Shown here one piece after another: positions 32,686-44,580 of a DNA stretch of 64,000 bases (position 1 is its first letter; each line of letters starts with the position of its first letter). Source of the stretch: a virus. The notes beneath the pieces were generated by a model that saw nothing but the letters and a program-made list of their open reading frames with translations, ran no database searches and was not told where the DNA came from. Where the stretch lies: the IMG/VR virus record IMGVR_UViG_3300036852_000742, positions 1 through 64,000 of that record, one strand, 5' to 3'. Made by a program: the position numbers and the translations under genes.

Positions 32686-33186
32686 ATGGCCACCACGAAG
32701 ACCGGACGTAAGACCCCCCGTCGGCGGTCCACTCAGGAGCGCCACGACGAGTACGTACACCTCACCGCGCTCGTCGAGCAGTTCGACCTCGCCGGGGACA
32801 CGGACGGTGCGCTCGCAGCTCGCTTCGCCCACTTCTGCACCATCTACAGCGAGCGCAACGCAATCCTGATCCTGGCCCAGAAGCCGGACGCGATCGAGGT
32901 CCACGGCTACGTCGACTGGCAGAAGCTGGGCCGGCAGGTGCGCCACGGCCAGACCGGAATCCGCATCATCGCCTACACGGGCTCCCGTCCGAACAAAGGC
33001 AAAGGCGACCTCAGCGAGACAGACCCTGCTGTGATCGACCCGACCACGGGAAAGCCCACCCGTCGCGACTTCAACCCGGTGTCCGTCTTTGACATCACCC
33101 AGACCGACCCGATGGGGCAAGACGCCGAAGCGCTCGCCGCCGTGGCCCGGTTCGAGGCCAACCAGGCAGCCAAGGCCGCGTCATGA
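32686..33186 (+). CDS. ArdC-like antirestriction protein
   Basis: 166 aa. YSERNAILILAQKPDAIEVH, VDWQKLGRQVRHGQTGIRII and, later, RDFNPVSVFDITQTDP match the N-terminal DUF1738 (ArdC) domain, which binds single-stranded DNA and shields incoming plasmid or phage DNA from host restriction. The C-terminal metallopeptidase half of full ArdC proteins is absent. First gene of the rightward operon: early antirestriction fits. Starts at ATG 32686 after GGAG. The specific protective role is inferred. Confidence 0.75.
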   Translation: MATTKTGRKTPRRRSTQERHDEYVHLTALVEQFDLAGDTDGALAARFAHFCTIYSERNAILILAQKPDAIEVHGYVDWQKLGRQVRHGQTGIRIIAYTGSRPNKGKGDLSETDPAVIDPTTGKPTRRDFNPVSVFDITQTDPMGQDAEALAAVARFEANQAAKAAS

Positions 33187-33581
33187 CCGTGCGGACTGGG
33201 TCGGCGTACAAGGCGTGGACGCCCCGGCAGGCCGGCTACGACCTGCCGGCCACGGTCGTCACCACCAGCCACGGCGACGGGGGCTTTACTCAGCACTACG
33301 TGCCCACTCGCCACGGCGCCGTCTGCCGGACGTGGACCGCCCCATCCATGACCGAGGTGGCCCTGTGCCGCACCAGCAACACCGGCGCGACGTTCCAGGG
33401 CGAGGTCAAACACTTCTCGTACGGCGGTTGGATCGCCTACGACCACAACGGCCAGCAGGTCTGCGACCCGTTCGCCGACTACCTCGACGCCGAGGCGACC
33501 CTGTTGCGCTTGCGCGGCGGACGCCGCTGCCAGGCCACCTACCGCTGGAACGTTCTCCCCGTTAGGAGCACCCGGTCATGA
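33183..33581 (+). CDS. Hypothetical protein, 132 aa
   Basis: Beta-rich protein (YDLPATVVTTSHGDGGFTQH, ATFQGEVKHFSYGGWIAYDH) with a basic end. No family. ATGA overlap at both ends couples it to the ArdC-like and methyltransferase-like genes, so it belongs to the same defence-related operon. Confidence 0.6.
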   Translation: MTVRTGSAYKAWTPRQAGYDLPATVVTTSHGDGGFTQHYVPTRHGAVCRTWTAPSMTEVALCRTSNTGATFQGEVKHFSYGGWIAYDHNGQQVCDPFADYLDAEATLLRLRGGRRCQATYRWNVLPVRSTRS

Positions 33582-34228
33582 ATCTGAACCTGCGAGAGCT
33601 GATGACGGTCGACGTCCCAGCGGGTGACGTGCGGGGGTTGCGGGTGGAGCGGTTCACCGTGGACAGCACTTCACCCGGTCATCTGCGCGAGGTGCTGCGC
33701 GGACGGGGAACCCGACCGGGTACGTACACCCGGCTGCTCGCCGGGCACCGGCTGTGGATGACCGACACCGACGCCGAGCGGCAGGATCACATGCCGGCTG
33801 CGCGCCGCATCGCCCAGACCGGCACCCGCCGGGTACTGATCAACGGCCTCGGGTTGGGCATGGTGCTGCGCGTCGCCCTCGCCATGGACCACGTCGAGCA
33901 CGTTGACGTGGTCGAGATCGACGACCGGGTGATCGAGCTGGTCGGGGCGCACTACACCGACCCCCGGCTGACCCTGCACCACGCCGACGCCTACGACCAG
34001 GCCCGCCGCTGGCCGGCCGGCTCCCGCTGGGACGTGGTCTGGCACGACATCTGGCCGGACCTGTGCACCGACAACCTGGACGGGATGGCCCGGCTGCACC
34101 GCTCCTACGGCCGCCGCGCCGGGTGGCAGGGCTCCTGGGGCAAAACCCTCCTGGAGGGCAAAGCTCGCGCTGACCGCAAGCAGGACCGGGAATGGGCGCG
34201 TGCACGGGCGTGGGTGGCGTCGCGATGA
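33578..34228 (+). CDS. Class I methyltransferase-fold protein
   Basis: 216 aa. VLINGLGLGMVLRVALAM is the glycine-rich SAM-binding loop, HVDVVEIDDRVIELV provides the acidic end of strand 2, LTLHHADAYDQA the next, and WDVVWHDIWPDL the motif IV-like strand, in the order of spermidine-synthase-type SAM enzymes. The start MNLNLRELM is chosen by ATGA overlap. The substrate is unknown; DNA base methylation is not indicated because no NPPY/DPPY motif is present. Confidence 0.7.
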   Translation: MNLNLRELMTVDVPAGDVRGLRVERFTVDSTSPGHLREVLRGRGTRPGTYTRLLAGHRLWMTDTDAERQDHMPAARRIAQTGTRRVLINGLGLGMVLRVALAMDHVEHVDVVEIDDRVIELVGAHYTDPRLTLHHADAYDQARRWPAGSRWDVVWHDIWPDLCTDNLDGMARLHRSYGRRAGWQGSWGKTLLEGKARADRKQDREWARARAWVASR

Positions 34229-37004: not shown

Positions 37005-37543
37005 TGCCCGAATCTGGACCTAACCCGTTCGTCTACCTCCTCTGGTCGAACTCCGCCAACGCGTGGTGGGCAGCCGGCACGGGTGCCGGCCACACCAAAG
37101 ATGTGTGGCAGGCGGGCCGTTTCGACAAGGACGCGGCGGCCAGCACGTGCGCCGCGTTTACCCCGGCCGTTGTGGTGATGGTGCTGGCCCCGGAGTACCA
37201 CCACGCACCGTTCACCGCAGCACAGCTACGGGAGGAGGTACCGGACATGATGCAGCGCCGGGTCCGCGACGCCACCGACCGGGCTGTTGCCGACGCGTAC
37301 GCCGCCCGCCAGCCGGGGTACCCGCCGGTGCACGTCTACTTCCTGCACGACACGCTCACACCCCGCACCGTCCGGGCCGTCCGGGACCTTGCCGCCGCGC
37401 CGGCCGTGGGAGACGTGTTCGACTTCCCGCACGCCGGCTACGAGGGCGCCGCCGTGACGTGGCGGGTGACCAGGGTCGAGATCACCGAGCAGGGTGGCAG
37501 CGCGACGGCGTACATGACCGACGCCGGGGAGGGACACCAGTGA
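37004..37543 (+). CDS. Hypothetical protein, 179 aa
   Basis: N-terminus beginning PNPFVYLLWSNSANAWWAAG with aromatic residues; the second half is beta-rich (VHVYFLHDTLTPRTV, FPHAGYEGAAVTWRVTRVEI). Unknown family. ATG overlaps the previous stop by 1 nt. Confidence 0.6.
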   Translation: MPESGPNPFVYLLWSNSANAWWAAGTGAGHTKDVWQAGRFDKDAAASTCAAFTPAVVVMVLAPEYHHAPFTAAQLREEVPDMMQRRVRDATDRAVADAYAARQPGYPPVHVYFLHDTLTPRTVRAVRDLAAAPAVGDVFDFPHAGYEGAAVTWRVTRVEITEQGGSATAYMTDAGEGHQ

Positions 37544-38358
37544 GCCGCGCCGCCCAGGTGCGGGCCTTCGCCCGTGACCTGTCCGAGCGGACCGGGGTAA
37601 GCATTGAGGTGTCCTATGACAGCGGGCCCCGCTGGCATCTTGAGTGGAGCGACGGGCCTTCCCGCGACGCGGTCATCAAGGCGGCCACAAAGACGGACCT
37701 GGCCGGCGCCGTGATCGTGACGCACCGGCATTACTCCACCCGCGCTGTCGCCCTCGGCTCGATACGCCTGGCAGCCTCAACCACCACCTACGGGCACTCC
37801 ACGGCGGAGACAAGGACCTGGCGGATCGAGGAGACGCTGGAGGAAGTCGACTATCCCGACCGGGCCGCCGACGCCCGCGAAGAGCACATGGTCAACCGGG
37901 TGTTGGTTGAGGCGACACCGGAAGGGTGGAAGTGGACTGACCGGGATCTCGTTGTTGCCTTGATTGGGCGGAAGGGGCTGGGGTGGTTACTCGCCGACGC
38001 AGACCCAGGTGTGGCAAGCCCCGCAGAGATCCTGACCGCCCGCTACGCCACGACGGGCGCTGAGGTTATCCAGTGGAATCGACACGCCCACCCGATGCCG
38101 GCGGCCGACGCGGTCCGGGCCGCGCTCGCCGACCCGGACCTGGGCGCCGTTGGCTCGGTGGCGTTGCTGAGGCTGCTCCGCCAGCTAAGGGAAGACCGGC
38201 AGCGGGCCGAAGACTTGGCGGTAGCTGTCGCCCAACGGGCCGGTGTGCCTTTGTGGGAGATCGCCGACGCGCTCGGGGTTGACAAGGTGCGTGTTTCCGG
38301 TGCCCAACACCAGGACACTGAACACACTCTCACCGGTACGAGGAAGGATGACGGCTGA
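37540..38358 (+). CDS. Hypothetical protein with C-terminal HTH
   Basis: 272 aa. GTG at 37540 (GTGA overlap). Central region with VDYPDRAADAREEHMVNRVL; the end, LRQLREDRQRAEDLAVAVAQ then RAGVPLWEIADALGVDKVRV, is a helix-turn-helix likely to bind DNA. It lies two genes before cas12m in a tightly coupled operon, so it might regulate the cassette, but no direct sign shows this. Confidence 0.6.
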   Translation: MSRAAQVRAFARDLSERTGVSIEVSYDSGPRWHLEWSDGPSRDAVIKAATKTDLAGAVIVTHRHYSTRAVALGSIRLAASTTTYGHSTAETRTWRIEETLEEVDYPDRAADAREEHMVNRVLVEATPEGWKWTDRDLVVALIGRKGLGWLLADADPGVASPAEILTARYATTGAEVIQWNRHAHPMPAADAVRAALADPDLGAVGSVALLRLLRQLREDRQRAEDLAVAVAQRAGVPLWEIADALGVDKVRVSGAQHQDTEHTLTGTRKDDG

Positions 38359-38585
38359 TGCCCACTACAGAGAATGAGCTGCCCACCGTTGTGGAGATGT
38401 TCGTCCGCGCGGACACCCTGATGGACACCGCGCACCGGGCGCTTGCCGACGCGGCCGACTGGCTGCGCTCGGACTGGCAGCCCCTCGGGGCTAGCTTGAC
38501 CGACGCGCAGGCGGCCCGCCGCAGCAAGATGTTCGCCGAGATCGAGGCTGCGATGGCCGCAATCGAAAGGGCCAGGCGCTCATGA
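38358..38585 (+). CDS. Small helical protein before cas12m, 75 aa
   Basis: Helical throughout (VEMFVRADTLMDTAHRALAD, AQAARRSKMFAEIEAAMAAI). Starts with ATG overlapping the previous stop, and its stop overlaps the cas12m start by 4 nt, so the two are translated together. No known family; it could be an accessory partner of the effector, which is an inference from position only. Confidence 0.6.
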   Translation: MPTTENELPTVVEMFVRADTLMDTAHRALADAADWLRSDWQPLGASLTDAQAARRSKMFAEIEAAMAAIERARRS

Positions 38586-40633
38586 TCACAGTTGTGTATC
38601 GGTACGGTGTCGCGTCCTGGTGGCGGGCACCAGAGTGGATCAGCGAGCAACTTCGGCTAGGGCACAACCTCGACAACGACCTTGTCTCGGTTGCCTACGA
38701 GCACGAGGAGGCCAAGGCCGCGCATTGGACGGCGTTCCCGCAGATCGCCGTTCACGAGGCCGCCCTAGCAACAGCCGAGACTGAGGCTGTGGATCTCTTC
38801 GCGCACGTCAAGCAGGTGCGCGGATGGCTGGGCAAGGCCAAACACGACAAGGACAAGCTCCGGGCCGCCGAGCTACGGGTGGACCTTGCCGCTGCGCAGG
38901 CCGATCTGAGGGCCGTCAAGGCCGGCATCGCCGCTCTGAAGTTGGAGCGGCGGACGTCGATCGCCGACGTGTACGAGCAGTCCACGGAGGCCCTGGCCGC
39001 GCTGTCGGACGACCGCAAGGCAAAGATCGGAGCCTTGTACGGGCGGTACTGCGGCAGCGACGGCGCTGAGGACGGCAGCGAGGATGCGGACGTGCTGCAC
39101 TGGGCCAGCTTCAACGCCGCCGTCAAGCACCACGAAACCGCCCGCCAGCGGATGTTGAAGGCGCGTGGTGCCGGGCAGGCCGCCCAGCTCCACTACCACC
39201 GGTGGGACGGCACAGGTGCGGTCACCGTGCAGTTGATGCGCCATGCCTGGTCGCATGGGTGCGCACCGTCGGGTCCTCCGTGGCCGTGCAACCCGGACAA
39301 GCCGCGCCCAAAGGCCGTTGACTGCCCGAACCGGCAGGCCAAAGACCCGGCCCGGTCACCGCAACTCCTCGCTGCCGGCGGCGGGAAATGGGCCAACGTG
39401 TTCCAGCTCAGCCCGTGGTCGCGGGACCCTGTGGCGTGGAAACGCCAGCCCCGTACCGCGCGGCGCGGCACAGCAACCCTGACCCTCAGCGGCGGCCGGC
39501 GCCTTGAGGTCCCCGTCCTCGTTGACCGGGTCCTGCCCGCAACTGCTGACGTACCGCAGGCGCAGCTCGTGCGGTCTGAGGTAGCCGGCCGGATGGTGTG
39601 GCACCTGTGCGTGACGGCGATCCTGCCCGACCCGGAGCCGGTGACCACCGGCCCGACCGTGGCGGTACACCTGGGGTGGCGGCGCCGCCCGGACGGGCAT
39701 GTCCGTGCCGGGGTTGTCCTACCCGACGGGCCACTCCCCCCACCACCCGCCGACCTGCTGCGGGCCGCGTCGTCGAGCCCCGGCCGCACCGGCACCGCCC
39801 CAACCCATGTCCCGCATCACCGCCCGTTCTTGGAACGCCACGACGGCTGGTGGGAAGTTGTCATCCCCGGCCCGATGTGGGACATCGTCGGCCGCCCGTC
39901 GGCAATCCGGGCACGCCGGGATCTCGCCTTCAACGAGATCCGGGACGTGCTGGTCAGGTGGTTGGATGAGCACCCGGAGCACGCCGACCCGCTGGGGCTC
40001 GACCTGGCCCGGGTCAAACTGTGGCGGGTGCCACGGGCACTGGCCGGCCTGGTACGACGGTGGGCCAGCGACGCGCAACTACCGGCCCTGTTCGCCGCGC
40101 AGTTGCTCCCCGACCTGGTCGCCTGGTGGCGACGGGACCTGCACCTGTACCGGTACGAAGTCGGCGAACGCCACGACCTGGCCGCCCGCCGTGACGACGT
40201 GTGGGGACAGATCGGGGCATGGCTCGGCCGGTCAGCCGGCCGGGTCCTCGTCGGGGACGAGGACTACCGGGCGCTGCGCCGACGCACCAGCATCGTCGAC
40301 GACGACATGAGCGCACCGACCGAAAGGGTCGATGAGGCGGTCCGTGCCCGCGCGGCCTTCGCCGTACCGGGGCTGCTACGCGCAGCGCTGACCAACGGCG
40401 CGAGCCGGCGCGGCGTGACCGTGGCGAAAGTCCCGGCAGCGTGGGCCACCCGGGAACACCACGAATGCGGCCATGTCGCGACCGGTGACGACGACCAGTA
40501 CAGGGAGCGGATCGTGGTGACCTGCCCTGGTTGCCAGGTTGCCTACGACCAGGACCGCAACGCGGTGCTGGTGATGCTGGAACGCGAGCGGGCCGGTAGC
40601 ACGGGGGCGAAGGGGGACCGCTCGCAGCCCTGA
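38582..40633 (+). CDS. cas12m: Cas12m (type V-M CRISPR effector)
   Basis: 683 aa. The N-terminus EQLRLGHNLDNDLV and GQAAQLHYHRWDGTG (198-212) match, from memory, Cas12m (C2c4/V-U1) proteins of mycobacteria. RuvC-I reads TVAVHLGW (359-366), with His in place of the usual catalytic Asp; this is a shared Cas12m hallmark. RuvC-II is VGDED (557-561, Asp not Glu). A zinc finger ECGH...CPGC (628-651) precedes RuvC-III YDQD (655-658). Cas12m is known to bind DNA at a TTN PAM and block transcription without cutting it. Length is slightly above the family norm, with a Cys-bearing insert near 221-250. Last gene of the rightward operon, with an array 128 bp downstream. Confidence 0.9.
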   Translation: MITVVYRYGVASWWRAPEWISEQLRLGHNLDNDLVSVAYEHEEAKAAHWTAFPQIAVHEAALATAETEAVDLFAHVKQVRGWLGKAKHDKDKLRAAELRVDLAAAQADLRAVKAGIAALKLERRTSIADVYEQSTEALAALSDDRKAKIGALYGRYCGSDGAEDGSEDADVLHWASFNAAVKHHETARQRMLKARGAGQAAQLHYHRWDGTGAVTVQLMRHAWSHGCAPSGPPWPCNPDKPRPKAVDCPNRQAKDPARSPQLLAAGGGKWANVFQLSPWSRDPVAWKRQPRTARRGTATLTLSGGRRLEVPVLVDRVLPATADVPQAQLVRSEVAGRMVWHLCVTAILPDPEPVTTGPTVAVHLGWRRRPDGHVRAGVVLPDGPLPPPPADLLRAASSSPGRTGTAPTHVPHHRPFLERHDGWWEVVIPGPMWDIVGRPSAIRARRDLAFNEIRDVLVRWLDEHPEHADPLGLDLARVKLWRVPRALAGLVRRWASDAQLPALFAAQLLPDLVAWWRRDLHLYRYEVGERHDLAARRDDVWGQIGAWLGRSAGRVLVGDEDYRALRRRTSIVDDDMSAPTERVDEAVRARAAFAVPGLLRAALTNGASRRGVTVAKVPAAWATREHHECGHVATGDDDQYRERIVVTCPGCQVAYDQDRNAVLVMLERERAGSTGAKGDRSQP

Positions 40634-40761
40634 CCGCGCAGGCCAAGGGTTAGTGTCAGCACCGAGAACGGGGCCATAACTCCACAGTGGACAAGTGTCC
40701 AGGGGAGCACTCGCGACGATCTACGTTTGCGCTGCTCAACCTGCGGCTTTTTCCCCAAGCC
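40634..40761 (+). other. Leader-like segment between cas12m and array
   Basis: 128 bp without a gene. It is less GC-rich than its surroundings towards the array, with a T-run (CTTTTTCC at about 40747-40754) just before repeat 1, and no clear promoter of the phage TTGCCC family. The array may be read through from the cas12m operon or from an unseen promoter here. Confidence 0.45.
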
Positions 40762-42615
40762 GTGGCAATGGCGATCGCAGCGCCCTTTCTCTGCGAGCCA
40801 CATGGTGAGCTTGCACGGCCAGACAATGATCTCGTGGCAATGGCGATCGCAGCGCCCTTTCTCTGCGAGGCGTCAGGACGTCAGCTACTACAGGTCTCCG
40901 TCCGAGTGACAACGGCGAGCGCAGCGCCTCGAACTCTGCGAGCGGCCATGTCTACAGAGGCCGGCGCATCGTCGGTTCGACGCGACAATGGCGAGCGCAG
41001 CGCCTCTTTCTCTGCGAGTGCGCCATGGGTTTACGCGGACTCCTGGCGAGGTACGTGACGACGGCGAGCGCAGCGCCTCAAATCTGCGAGGTCCGGGCTG
41101 TCGCGTTCGTCATGGGTGACGAACGCGATCGCAGCGATCCTTCTCTGCGAGTACGTCGACGACTCCGGCGCCGAGGCGAGGCGGTTCAAGTGGCAATGGC
41201 GATCGCAGCGCCCAAAGACTGCGAGCTTAGCTCCTCGTCGTAGTACCCCTGCACTGCAAGGTGGCAATGGCGAGCGCAGCGCCTGAAATCTGCGAGCCGG
41301 TGATTCGGTGCGGCCGGCGTTGGGTGGTACCTGCATGTGACCATGGCGAGCGCAGCGCCTCAACTCTGCGAGAAGGGGCAGGGCCTGTCGCGCGTACCAG
41401 GCCCGCGCGGTGACCATGGCGAGCGCAGCGCCTCAACTCTGCGAGTCCCGCCAGCTTGACTACCCGCTAGCCTGGATCAGGCCGGTGACCATGGCGAGCG
41501 CAGCGCCTCAACTCTGCGAGTCTCCACCGGCGTCATGCTCACTTCGCGCAACCCCAAGGTGACCATGGCGAGCGCAGCGCCTCAACTCTGCGAGGAGGGT
41601 CTCCCGTAGCAGCTCGGTGCAGCGTGACAACGGCGAGCGCAGCGCCTGAAATCTGCGACGCTATATCGTGAAGCAGGCGCACCATTATGAGCGTGGTGAC
41701 AATGGCGAGCGCAGCGCCCCTCTTTCTGCGAGTACCTGAACCACGCCCGAGCGGCTTCCGTTGCCTGCGGCGTAGCAACGGCGAGCGCAGCGCCCTTTTT
41801 CTGCGAGTGCGTGTGCGGCGAGGCCGCAGTACTGACGCGACAGTGGCGAGCGCAGCGCCTAAAACCTGCGACTTGGTATCCCGATCCAGGCGGCCCGTGA
41901 GACCGCGTAAGTGACAACGGCGACCGCAGCGCCCTTTCTCTGCGAGGCTGCAATGAGTAACTACATGGATGTCCGGCGCAGGTAACGATGGTGATCGCAG
42001 CACCTCAAAACTGCGAGTGGATGGTCCCGATGTTGGTCGTGATCGAGGGCGCCGCGCGTGACAATGGTGATCGCAGCACCTCAAACTGCGAGGTCGTCAG
42101 CCGCACGGACGCGGCAAGGTTTGAGACCATGAGCGACAATGGCGATCACAGCGCCTCAAAACCTGCGAGCTGGATGCGGCGGCGGAGCATCTCCGCGTCG
42201 CGCGTACCGGCGACAATGGCGATCACAGCGACCACAAACTGTGAGATCCTCTCAACCGGTGCTAGCTTGCGCGCGACCGGTTGCGTGACGATGGTGATCG
42301 CAGCGCCCAAAACCTGCGAGCACGGCAGCGCCTCCAGCCCGACCGGTTGCGCGACGACGGTGAGCGCAGCACCCAAGAAGACACTGCGAGTTCGAGTACG
42401 TGTCGGCTCCTCCAAGGGCGACATGGGCGACGATGGTGAGCGCAGCGCCCAAAGTCTGCGAGTGATGGGGTGGCGCGAGCAGTACGACCGCATGCAGGTG
42501 GCAATGGCAATGGCGATCGCAGCGCCCAAAACCTGCGAGTCCATAGCTTGGATGGGTTACCACTCCGCGCTACGGCGCGACAACGGTGATCGCAGCGCCC
42601 CAACGATCCTGCGAG
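40762..42615 (+). CRISPR. CRISPR array with 26 degenerate repeats, 25 spacers
   Basis: Repeats are usually 36 nt (range 35-42), begin G(T/C)GRCAATGGCGA-like and end CTGCGAG; spacers are 25-40 nt, mostly 35-40. Repeat starts: 40762, 40834, 40906, 40982, 41055, 41116, 41190, 41261, 41337, 41410, 41485, 41559, 41624, 41696, 41772, 41837, 41911, 41982, 42058, 42133, 42210, 42285, 42351, 42427, 42498, 42577. Repeats 1 and 2 are identical and repeats 9-12 are identical; others vary. Each holds CGCAG and CTGCG (stem) around a variable loop. Same direction as cas12m. Repeats 13 and 16 end CTGCGAC. Confidence 0.9.
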
Positions 42616-42637
42616 TACTGCTCCGGGTGCGAAGAAT

Positions 42638-42674
42638 GCCCCGCCCCAAACGCCAGCGGCGTCGGGGGCGGGGC
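42638..42674. terminator. Hairpin ending the CRISPR region
   Basis: A 10-bp stem (GCCCCGCCCC at 42638-42647 with 42665-42674) holding an inner CGCC/GGCG pair. It lies 22 bp after the last repeat and 18 bp before the stop of the convergent leftward gene, so it may end transcripts from both sides. Confidence 0.65.
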
Positions 42675-42692
42675 AACGTGCGCGGGGAGAAG

Positions 42693-42962
42693 CTAGGCCA
42701 CGGTGACGTGCACCCCGTCCGCCAGGTCCACTGCACCTCCGGCGCGGGCCACCCGGTGCGCAGCTTCGGCGGTGAGCCCGGCGGCGACCAGGCGCAGCAT
42801 CATCGCCGCCACTTTGGGTTCGGTGGCCGGCCAGCGGCGGGGTACACCCGATCCGGGGGCGGGGTCGACAGGTTGGAGGTAGCCGCGCCGGGTCCACACA
42901 TCGGCCCGGCGGGGGGTGAGCCCGACAGCGAGCATGTCCTGGTAGCCGGCGTCGTTGTTCAC
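42693..42962 (-). CDS. MerR-like small HTH protein, 89 aa
   Basis: GTG at 42962 overlaps the upstream TGA. The core (LAVGLTPRRADVWTRRGYLQ then RRWPATEPKVAAMMLRLVAA) has the MerR-like winged-helix layout common in short actinophage regulators, with a final domain HRVARAGGAVDLADGVHV. Its target is unknown; it is the nearest leftward gene to the CRISPR array. Confidence 0.65.
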   Translation of the reverse strand: MNNDAGYQDMLAVGLTPRRADVWTRRGYLQPVDPAPGSGVPRRWPATEPKVAAMMLRLVAAGLTAEAAHRVARAGGAVDLADGVHVTVA

Positions 42963-43282
42963 CGCCGTGTCGGCGGTGTTGTCGGGTTGTACTGGGGCTG
43001 CCCGGTGGACACACCCAACGACAACAGGACCCGGGCGGCGCGGTGCGCGAACCCGGCGCCGCGCCGGGTATCGGGCCAGCGTTCCAACCACCGCCCCAAC
43101 TCCCACACCGCCCCGGCGAGCACAAACCCGATGACCTCGAAGAGCACTGCCTCACCAACATGAACGCCCAACGGCTCCAACTTCACCAGCGCCGGTTGCG
43201 CCCACACCACCAGCACAGCGGCGACGTGTCCGAGCAGGATCGGCCACCAGGTCCGCAGCCGCGCGGCAAGCTCATCGGACAT
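42959..43282 (-). CDS. Membrane protein, 107 aa
   Basis: The ATG at 43282 has GGAGG 6 nt upstream. Two hydrophobic segments (ILLGHVAAVLVVWA, LFEVIGFVLAGAVW). Followed by the MerR-like gene in the same operon. Its upstream side was interrupted by the insertion element, so its original promoter may have been lost or moved. Confidence 0.6.
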   Translation of the reverse strand: MSDELAARLRTWWPILLGHVAAVLVVWAQPALVKLEPLGVHVGEAVLFEVIGFVLAGAVWELGRWLERWPDTRRGAGFAHRAARVLLSLGVSTGQPQYNPTTPPTRR

Positions 43283-43339
43283 GCCTGCCTCCACGCGTAG
43301 CCTTGGGCCGGTGACAGACAAAGCCAACGGGTTGATCTG

Positions 43340-43480
43340 TTGACATCCTCCCCCGTCTAAGGGCGGGGGATTCCAACTGCAAGCGGTTGAGGTTCACGGG
43401 CGCTCAACGCCTTGCGGCGTGTCGCCCCTCCGGCACGAGACGGTTGTCTCGGGACTGGTGTGCAGTCCTGTCCTGCCGCG
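43340..43480 (-). ncRNA. Putative omega RNA (reRNA) of tnpB
   Basis: In this family a guide RNA is made from the 3' end of tnpB through the hairpin end, with a guide taken from the sequence just outside the element (here about 43320-43339). Only the hairpin and gene order support this; the start of the RNA is unknown. Confidence 0.4.
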
Positions 43481-44580
43481 ATGTTGATGCTGGCGTTGTG
43501 GTCGGCGTTGCAGGTAAAGCCGCAGGCGGTGCAACAGAATCGGGCTTGGCTCTCGCGCGAGTTCTTGTCGATCCATCCGCAGGCACTGCAACGCAGGCTG
43601 GTGTAGGCGGCTTTGACTTTCTGGACGCGGCCGGGGGCTTTGTCTTCGGTGCGCCGGGCGAGCATGCCCCACCCGGACGCGAGGATGGCCCGGTTCAGGC
43701 CGGCCTTCTGCCGGACGTTGCGGCCGGGGCTATCGACGGTGCCCCTTGCGGTCGCGGTCATGTTCTTGATCCGCAGGTCTTCGAGGCGGATCACGTCGAA
43801 CCGGCGGGCGAATGCGGTGCTGGTTTTCTCGGTCCAGTCCTTGCGGATGTCCGCCTCGCGTGCCTTGAGCCGTGCGATCCGCTGACGCTCAACCTGCACT
43901 ACCTCGGACCGCTTCGGTGCCCGAGCCTTGCGCCGTTCTGCCTTACGCAGTCGGGCCCGCTCTTTGCTGGACAGGCGAGGGCAGGCCAGTGTTTCGCCCG
44001 TGCTCAACGCGGCCGTGATGGTCACGCCCCGGTCGACGCCGACAACCGTTCCGTTTCCGGGAGACTCGATCGGGTCGGGGATGACCGCGAACGCGACGTG
44101 CCAACGCCCGGAGCGGTCACAGGTGATGCGGTACGACTTGCATGCCGCAACGGATCGCGACCAGCGGAACCGAACCCAGCCAACCTTGGGAACCTTGACC
44201 TGACCCCAGTGTCGGTTCAGCCGTTGGACATGGAGTCCGAAGGTGAAGTCGGTGATCCGGAAGCCTTCGTGGACGTACTTGCTGCGCCACGTCGGCCGCA
44301 TGTGGGCGCCCGTAAAGAAGTTGGCCATGGCTTGGGCGTAGTCGCGCAGAGCCTGTTGCTGGACGTTAACCGAACCGGCGGCGAGCCACGGCTCGGCGGT
44401 GCGCGCTTCGGTGAGTTGGCGGCACTGGACGACGAAGCTGGGGGCCGACCGACGGGCACGCGCGGGCGTCCACCACGCTCCCTGTTCAACGGCCAGATTC
44501 CAGACGTACCGGGCGTCACCGCAGTGCGACAGAAGGGTCGCCTCCTGCGCCACGGTCGGGTACAGCCGATACCTGGACAT
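43357..44580 (-). CDS. tnpB: TnpB RNA-guided nuclease
   Basis: 407 aa. VGVDRG (D183), RLEDL (E267) and CNADHNA (D360) are the three RuvC catalytic residues, all intact. The zinc ribbon CSAC...CTAC (C331, C334, C350, C353) sits between the last two, and the C-terminal residues are coded inside the hairpin end, as is usual. The ATG at 44580 matches MSRYRLYPT, the common TnpB start. It probably makes an active RNA-guided nuclease for element retention. Cas12 effectors derive from TnpB, and a Cas12m gene lies about 3 kb away. Confidence 0.9.
   Translation of the reverse strand: MSRYRLYPTVAQEATLLSHCGDARYVWNLAVEQGAWWTPARARRSAPSFVVQCRQLTEARTAEPWLAAGSVNVQQQALRDYAQAMANFFTGAHMRPTWRSKYVHEGFRITDFTFGLHVQRLNRHWGQVKVPKVGWVRFRWSRSVAACKSYRITCDRSGRWHVAFAVIPDPIESPGNGTVVGVDRGVTITAALSTGETLACPRLSSKERARLRKAERRKARAPKRSEVVQVERQRIARLKAREADIRKDWTEKTSTAFARRFDVIRLEDLRIKNMTATARGTVDSPGRNVRQKAGLNRAILASGWGMLARRTEDKAPGRVQKVKAAYTSLRCSACGWIDKNSRESQARFCCTACGFTCNADHNASINIAAGQDCTPVPRQPSRAGGATRRKALSAREPQPLAVGIPRP

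What the first reader, a model, noticed from the sequence alone, without database searches (positions are those of the whole stretch)
38582..42615. Complete phage-borne type V-M (Cas12m) CRISPR system
A 683-aa protein with the Cas12m-type N-terminus, altered RuvC-I (VHLGW), zinc finger and YDQD motif is followed 128 bp later by a 26-repeat array in the same orientation, inside an evident phage genome with capsid and tail genes. Cas12m is known to silence targets by binding DNA without cutting. A phage that carries it could silence host defence genes or rival phages while leaving DNA intact. I know of no description of Cas12m with its own array on an actinophage; that novelty needs a literature check.
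Basis: partly seen in the sequence, partly recalled or inferred. Interest (0 to 1): 0.97.

Follow-up and report, generated by a model that had tools for sequence, protein, structure and literature searches.

The report
Phage-borne Cas12m with drifting guide array
A bacterial virus carries its own compact RNA-guided DNA-binding protein (Cas12m) and 25 guides in a row; such virus-borne systems are already known, but here almost every guide scaffold has a different sequence while keeping the same RNA fold, and one of the protein's three active-site residues is lost.

Summary
The 683-aa ORF at 38582-40633 is a Cas12m by profile, sequence and predicted fold. Its 26-repeat array starts 128 bp downstream, in an 81,120-bp tailed-phage record.

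The novelty claim fails. A review says V-M is encoded by some prophages, and I found 13 other IMG/VR contigs with a Cas12m relative beside repeats.

Two things are less ordinary. (1) The RuvC triad is His-Gly-Asp: the position of MmCas12m2 Asp485 is Gly558, the only Gly among 20 aligned sequences. Cleavage is unlikely; binding-only silencing is the best reading. (2) The 26 repeats come in 22 sequences, the most divergent of 13 V-M arrays compared. They keep the V-M crRNA pseudoknot (98% of pair cells), with a few compensatory changes. I read this as an old array, with no Cas1 in the record, whose scaffolds drift under selection for fold.

No target was found for any of the 25 spacers. The host is probably an actinobacterium.

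The parts
38358..38585 (+). 75-aa ORF overlapping the cas12m start by 4 nt (translational coupling, inferred); no family match
38582..40633 (+). cas12m, 683 aa, RuvC triad H363-G558-D658
   Evidence: PADLOC Cas12u1 E 6.8e-103; PDB Cas12m2 8hhl 3.7e-73 and GoCas12m 8pm4 1.2e-70; fold Z 23.8 to 8pm4; triad
40634..40761 (+). 128-bp gap or leader between cas12m and the first repeat; no sigma-70-like promoter found; a weak terminator-like site at 40731-40747
40762..42615 (+). CRISPR array: 26 repeats (22 distinct, 35-40 nt), 25 spacers (25-41 nt)
42637..42675 (+). Terminator-like GC hairpin just after the last repeat (no T tract)
   Evidence: z -5.39, 0 of 200 shuffles as good, for 42616-42690

Best explanation
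This is a phage-encoded subtype V-M CRISPR system. Shown: a Cas12m-type effector with an H-G-D pseudo-active site, followed on the same strand by an array whose 26 repeats nearly all keep the V-M crRNA pseudoknot, with no Cas1 found in the record and no anti-repeat found near the locus. Inferred: the array is transcribed up to the terminal hairpin, Cas12m takes part in processing it into about 25 crRNAs, and the complexes bind PAM-flanked DNA and block transcription or replication without cutting. Inferred: spacers were gained at the leader end in the past, with host machinery or genes since lost. The older repeats then drifted mostly in unpaired positions while selection kept the fold, so the array has been in use for a long time. 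Which genomes it silences is not known.
For: Effector family. Triad: MmCas12m2 His317, Asp485 and Asp579 (PMC10442227, section 9) align with H363, G558 and D658; counting along the 596-residue chain printed fixes the register. Pseudoknot: GGCG/CGCC stem plus CGCAG/CUGCG, with G or U (21 of 22 distinct repeats; C in one) facing A(-2), the same positions as the published MmCas12m2 crRNA (PK C-22..C-17 with G-8..G-3). Across 22 distinct repeats 98.0% of 198 cells pair; 4 cells change on both sides (shuffle mean 1.0, 0 of 500 as high), and no slid register exceeds 58.6%. Mean minor-letter share is 0.018 and 0.009 in PK columns, 0.08 and 0.068 in the stem, 0.176 in the 5' tail, 0.25 in the linker, 0.045 in the last two bases. 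Relatives share the scheme: one repeat from each of 13 arrays pairs in 13 of 13 at eight of nine positions (those repeats were picked for pairing). No Cas1 at E <= 1 in the record. Best anti-repeat in the flanks is 22 of 36, equal to the best of 30 shuffles. Terminal hairpin. Neighbouring repeats are more alike than chance: p 0.00045, or 0.037 with identical runs collapsed. Repeats 18-26 differ from consensus by 3-5 changes, repeats 1-5 by 1-2.
Against: No expression data; no spacer has a target. In MmCas12m2, D485A (H-A-D) lowers DNA binding and silencing (PMC10442227), so Gly there may mean a weakened protein. The repeats were collected with a pattern that fixes most pseudoknot letters; as no place in the array was skipped this hides no inner repeat, but one beyond the ends could be missed. 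Of five covariation measures two do not beat shuffles: pairs with both sides changed 39/500, further pair types 491/500. The 4 doubly changed cells may be only about three events, since repeats 18 and 19 are neighbours. Repeat 6 lacks two stem pairs, repeats 20 and 21 one pair each; repeat 6 is also the furthest from consensus (6 changes) and breaks the polarity. Three repeats folded alone do not beat shuffles (z 0.44, -0.97, -1.20; pseudoknots are not modelled). No promoter-like site was found, and the one terminator-like site found lies just before repeat 1 (40731-40747; fewer than shuffles give, mean 2.2).
Confidence: 0.8

Rival explanations
1. The locus is a relic: an array no longer in use, with repeats and the RuvC site decaying together.
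For: Degenerate repeats; H-G-D triad; no targets found; three repeats with broken pairs.
Against: The 683-aa frame is intact with the codon bias of the phage's other genes. Changes avoid paired columns and some are compensatory. Four of the five pseudoknot pairs never vary among the 22 distinct repeats, though the collecting pattern favours this.
Confidence: 0.12
2. Cas12m and the array act mainly on the host's own V-M system, as decoy guides or a competing effector, rather than on DNA targets.
For: Single repeats and an inactivated Cas9 are described as phage inhibitors of host CRISPR (PMC11656645, passages).
Against: 25 different spacers of guide length would not be needed for a decoy. The exact repeat pattern was found in 0 of 396 actinobacterial genomes, which are a thin sample without the known host.
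Confidence: 0.05
3. The effector still cuts DNA, with Asp559 or a neighbour standing in for the lost RuvC-II residue.
For: D559 and D561 lie next to G558. Some viral Cas12m relatives have a D-E-D triad (L247, L248, L251).
Against: His at RuvC-I as in the non-cutting Cas12m2. D559 aligns with the residue after the catalytic one. Changing HDD to DED did not bring cleavage back in MmCas12m2 (PMC10442227, section 12).
Confidence: 0.03

Closest known systems
MmCas12m2 (Mycolicibacterium mucogenicum V-M, PDB 8hhl/8hhm/8hio)
   Same: Fold (Z 22.5-23.6, 36-37% identity over 486-546 aligned residues); His in RuvC-I, Asp in RuvC-III; same crRNA pseudoknot positions
   Different: RuvC-II Asp485 is Gly558 here; 683 against 596 aa, with an insert around residues 222-250 (that alignment holds other Cas12m, not this one)
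GoCas12m (Gordonia otitidis, PDB 8pm4; L010)
   Same: Best structural match (Z 23.8, 538 residues, 36% identity); protects E. coli from phages and plasmids by binding (PMC11013384, abstract and passages)
   Different: H-D-D triad; 6 repeats, all identical
MsCas12m plasmid locus (Allomeiothermus silvanus, L005)
   Same: V-M whose 7 recovered repeats are all different (mean identity 0.80)
   Different: D-E-D triad and 26% identity; on a plasmid
IMG/VR V-M loci L242/L250, L243 and L244
   Same: 38-42% identity over aligned residues, array downstream
   Different: H-D-D; L242 carries cas4, cas1 and cas2 and 31 recovered, nearly uniform repeats; terminase not found in these four contigs

Membership tests
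Subtype V-M (Cas12m / C2c4 / V-U1) | Effector matches Cas12m better than other Cas12 or TnpB families | tested here: met
   Cas12u1 343 bits; next a whole-length PADLOC profile labelled Cas12f, 330 bits; TnpB 24 bits; the top five PDB sequences are Cas12m entries (8pm4 is labelled 'Transposase', its title says Cas12m)
Subtype V-M (Cas12m / C2c4 / V-U1) | Fold of solved Cas12m | tested here: met
   Top 4 rows are Cas12m, Z 22.5-23.8; next TnpB 14.6; model pLDDT 72.9, pTM 0.54
Subtype V-M (Cas12m / C2c4 / V-U1) | Adjacent array whose repeats form stem plus pseudoknot | tested here: met
   sequence evidence only
Subtype V-M (Cas12m / C2c4 / V-U1) | No tracrRNA | tested here: met
   No anti-repeat above shuffled controls in 37501-40700 and 42651-44500 (best 22 of 36, control best 22); Rfam none
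Subtype V-M (Cas12m / C2c4 / V-U1) | No adaptation genes (typical, not strict) | tested here: met
   No Cas1 in the 81,120-bp record, which may be incomplete; Cas2 and Cas4 not sought in it
Subtype V-M (Cas12m / C2c4 / V-U1) | RNA-guided, PAM-dependent DNA binding without cleavage | not testable with these tools
   Needs biochemistry
Cas12m clade 2 (HDD triad) | His-Asp-Asp in RuvC-I, -II, -III | tested here: not met
   H363-G558-D658; clades as listed in PMC10442227 section 12: HEK/HQK; HDD; DED/NED; DED/DND/NED
TnpB (IS605/IS607) | Match above the curated TnpB cut-off | tested here: not met
   23.7 bits against cut-off 100

The most novel reading that the evidence does not exclude
A phage uses a Cas12m that lacks two of the three canonical (D-E-D) catalytic residues as a standing multiplex gene silencer, not as adaptive immunity. 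Its 25 guides have been kept for a long time, each scaffold under its own selection. Scaffold divergence may also protect the array from spacer loss by recombination between identical repeats.
Probability: 0.25. Interest if true: 0.75.

Novelty: new member of a known kind. Interest (0 to 1): 0.5.

Why it matters
If expressed, this is a natural library of up to 22 crRNA scaffolds for one small DNA-binding effector, with the repeat already varied by evolution. That would be useful for multiplex repression, where identical repeats can recombine. It also tests whether the RuvC-II Asp, important for binding in MmCas12m2, can be dispensed with. The viral V-M loci gathered here, with and without cas1, bear on how arrays age when acquisition stops.

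Tried and rejected
Spacer targets. The whole array was compared with phages (1 record, E 0.6), plasmids (4 records, best E 0.04), 396 Actinomycetota genomes (5 of 396 with E <= 1e-4, best 2.1e-5), 186 genomes of one family (2 of 186, best 2.4e-5), and five records or genomes behind loci (4 of 5 at E <= 1, best 0.0016). In some searches the tool scored two candidates per genome. Against 249 loci in hand the best real spacer reached 42 bits, shuffles 38, but the top hits lie in loci fetched because they matched the array, so this is biased. Against the phage itself 5 of 25 spacers beat all five of their shuffles, by 1-2 matches, about what five controls each would give. All judged background. 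No composition control was run for the genome searches, so a weak true target is not excluded.

Spacer 6 recurs as a 20-25 nt match in several genomes. It reads like common high-GC coding sequence; I do not count it as a target, and did not test that reading.

Host. The portal protein is up to 66% like IMG/VR relatives (131 found, best 80 kept) and 43-46% like Brevibacterium, Glutamicibacter and Microcystis phage portals. It occurs in 2 of 396 Actinomycetota genomes at E <= 1e-20. An actinobacterial host is probable; no genus is named.

Close kin of the phage. No megablast match for 30000-54000. One neighbour gene found no relative in IMG/VR. Of 38 virus records searched (35 of the 80 portal relatives, plus L007-L009) only L007-L009 hold a Cas12m match.

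The first scans with the single protein found no relative in IMG/VR or in genome contigs; alignments were needed. The repeat pattern scan of IMG/VR gave 6 contigs. Four carry a like sequence that Rfam calls Proteo-phage-1 RNA in the two tested (L044, L155); none of the four holds a Cas12m match; the other two share another sequence.

A claim that uniform repeats go with cas1 was considered and dropped: L007 has uniform repeats and no Cas1 in its record; L010 has uniform repeats but its genome was not searched.
Full report
What is there. ORF 38582-40633 (+) encodes 683 aa. PADLOC's Cas12u1 profile covers residues 3-670 with E 6.8e-103. The best solved structures by sequence are Cas12m2 (8hhl, 3.7e-73; 8hio, 3.8e-73) and GoCas12m (8pm4, 1.2e-70). 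Pfam sees only the Cas12f1-like TNB domain, and NCBIfam's TnpB model scores 23.7 bits against a cut-off of 100. An AlphaFold2 model from nine sequences (pLDDT 72.9, pTM 0.54) aligns best to the four Cas12m entries (Z 22.5-23.8), well above TnpB at 14.6. Residues 221-297 of the model are not reliable.

The array. A pattern scan gives 26 repeats and 25 spacers. With 36-nt repeats the array is 40762-42615, 128 bp after the cas12m stop. Spacers are 25-41 nt. A GC hairpin at 42637-42675 follows it; the stretch 42616-42690 folds at -51.7 kcal/mol against -33.9 for shuffles, z -5.39. In 38200-42800 no sigma-70-like promoter was found; one terminator-like site (shuffles give 2.2) lies just before repeat 1. 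No anti-repeat exceeds shuffled controls in the flanks. Rfam has no match in the window at gathering score.

Repeat drift under a kept fold. The 26 repeats are 22 different sequences. By eye nearly every one reads as stem GGCG/CGCC plus pseudoknot CGCAG/CUGCG, then A and G or C, then the spacer. This is the register published for the MmCas12m2 crRNA (PMC10442227, passages). The repeats were collected with a pattern that fixes most pseudoknot letters, but no place in the array was skipped. On the alignment 98.0% of 198 cells pair. One stem pair goes from C-G to U-A in 3 distinct repeats (18, 19, 23) and to U-G in 3. One pseudoknot pair goes from G-C to A-U in repeat 21, while its neighbour repeat 20 has the half-changed, unpaired state. 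Against 500 shuffles the paired share, the number of doubly changed cells and the covariation score were never reached; two other measures were not unusual (39/500 and 491/500). Sliding the partner by 1-3 columns drops pairing to 18.8-58.6%. The tool warns that such counts are not probabilities and that a structure taken from the sequences themselves is favoured. Adjacent repeats are more alike than in random order (p 0.00045; 0.037 when identical runs are collapsed). Repeats at the far end differ more from the consensus than those near cas12m, with repeat 6 as the exception. That polarity fits ordinary ageing of an array that once grew at its leader end, and so speaks somewhat against a guide bank that was never adaptive.

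Comparison with other V-M arrays. Over 13 arrays (this and 12 other loci) mean pairwise repeat identity is lowest here: 0.728 over the 25 repeats that this ungapped count recovered of 26. L244, with only 2 repeats recovered, is 0.75; the A. silvanus plasmid is 0.804 (7 of 7 distinct); L243 is 0.830 (10 of 11 distinct); the rest run from 0.909 to 1.0. Left out of this count were L248, L250 (nearly the same as L242), L251 and the mycobacterial loci. Ungapped counting lowers identity where loops differ in length. So drifting repeats are a trait of several V-M arrays, and this is the extreme case seen. One repeat from each of 13 arrays shows the same pairing plan, paired in 13 of 13 at all five pseudoknot and three of four stem positions (7 of 13 at the outermost stem position), with two or more pair types at seven of these eight positions. 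Those repeats were picked for pairing, by scan or by eye.

Active site. Counting along the chain printed sets Asp485 of MmCas12m2 against Gly558 here; His317 is H363 and Asp579 is D658. Among 20 sequences aligned, this one included, the RuvC-II residue is Asp in 11, Glu in 4, Met in 3 (L249, L008, L009), Ser in 1 (L246) and Gly only here. In one search L008 and L009 place Ala in this column, so those rows are uncertain by a residue. PMC10442227 (sections 9 and 12) lists the triads HEK/HQK, HDD, DED/NED and DED/DND/NED, says that D485A lowers DNA binding and silencing, and that changing HDD to DED did not restore cutting. PMC11013384 (section 36) adds N-D-D variants. H-G-D is on neither list. 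I take it as a further step away from cleavage, with the caution that it may also cost affinity.

The carrier. The window is bases 1-64000 of an IMG/VR virus record of 81,120 bp. PHROGs finds terminase, portal (1e-114), head protease, head morphogenesis, tape measure and endolysin. The + strand block before cas12m holds an ArdC-N anti-restriction domain (32686-33186) and a methyltransferase-like protein (33578-34228). A 75-aa ORF overlaps the cas12m start by 4 nt, so cas12m probably sits in a phage operon (inferred). Of 76 named phage records with a portal relative, 69 are phages of actinobacterial genera by first word of the name (the genera's phylum is recalled).

How new. [quoted passage not shown] PMC12607003 (passages) reports virally encoded type V effectors near viral arrays, some clustering with Cas12m or V-U1. 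A scan with a nine-row alignment found 13 IMG/VR contigs with a relative (L242 and L250 are nearly the same locus), with repeat clusters beside the gene in 13 of 13 (L244 weakly). A terminase match was found in 6 of the 13; for the other 7, L242/L250 among them, the phage status rests on IMG/VR's class. My paper searches, judged by titles and abstract starts, showed no paper on V-M repeat drift with kept pseudoknot or on an H-G-D Cas12m. They cover only the open library, and the founding paper (Wu et al. 2022) was seen only as a citation.

Mechanism and limits. The steps shown are the gene, the array, the kept fold, the missing RuvC-II residue and the absence of Cas1 in this record. Transcription, processing, binding and silencing are inferred from MmCas12m2 and GoCas12m; GoCas12m protected E. 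coli from phages by binding (PMC11013384, abstract and passages). Targets are unknown after searches of 50,697 phage records, 72,556 plasmids and 396 + 186 genomes, at least one of them in both groups.

Noticed in passing
L242:3241-9653 and L250 (IMG/VR 3300012532_000100 and 3300012204_000085): A V-M locus with its own adaptation genes. In L242: cas12m (H-D-D), Cas4 (1.5e-12), Cas1 (1.6e-78), Cas2 (6.1e-19) and 31 recovered, nearly uniform repeats; Cas4 and Cas1 overlap in two frames. In L250 Cas1 was confirmed too. V-U systems are described as typically lacking such genes. The two arrays differ by 2 bases over the 2.5 kb compared. No terminase in either contig.
   Followed up: partly
window:43357-44865 (-): A TnpB (215 bits to the TnpB model) lies 741 bp beyond the last repeat; neither a TnpA nor its guide RNA was sought.
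   Followed up: no
L044:419-497, L155:8075-8153 (also L113, L153): The 5' part of Proteo-phage-1 RNA (RF03044, function unknown to me) fits the Cas12m repeat pattern with the same stem and pseudoknot pairing. No Cas12m match in these four contigs; may be chance, and Rfam's own structure differs.
   Followed up: partly
window:38582-40630, residues 222-250: An insert absent from the eight relatives aligned holds three cysteines (227, 236, 248). L242's protein also has Cys-rich stretches in its N-terminal half. Possibly an extra metal site.
   Followed up: no
L006:14372-15877 (-): The phage carries a phosphoadenosine phosphosulfate reductase-like gene (1.7e-77).
   Followed up: no
window:32686-33186 (+): ArdC-N anti-restriction domain protein on the same strand about 5.4 kb upstream of cas12m, suggesting a counter-defence stretch.
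   Followed up: no
L245, L246 loci: Viral cas12m-like frames with no RuvC-III block in the alignment, next to arrays with 9 and 8 recovered repeats; truncated or frameshifted.
   Followed up: no
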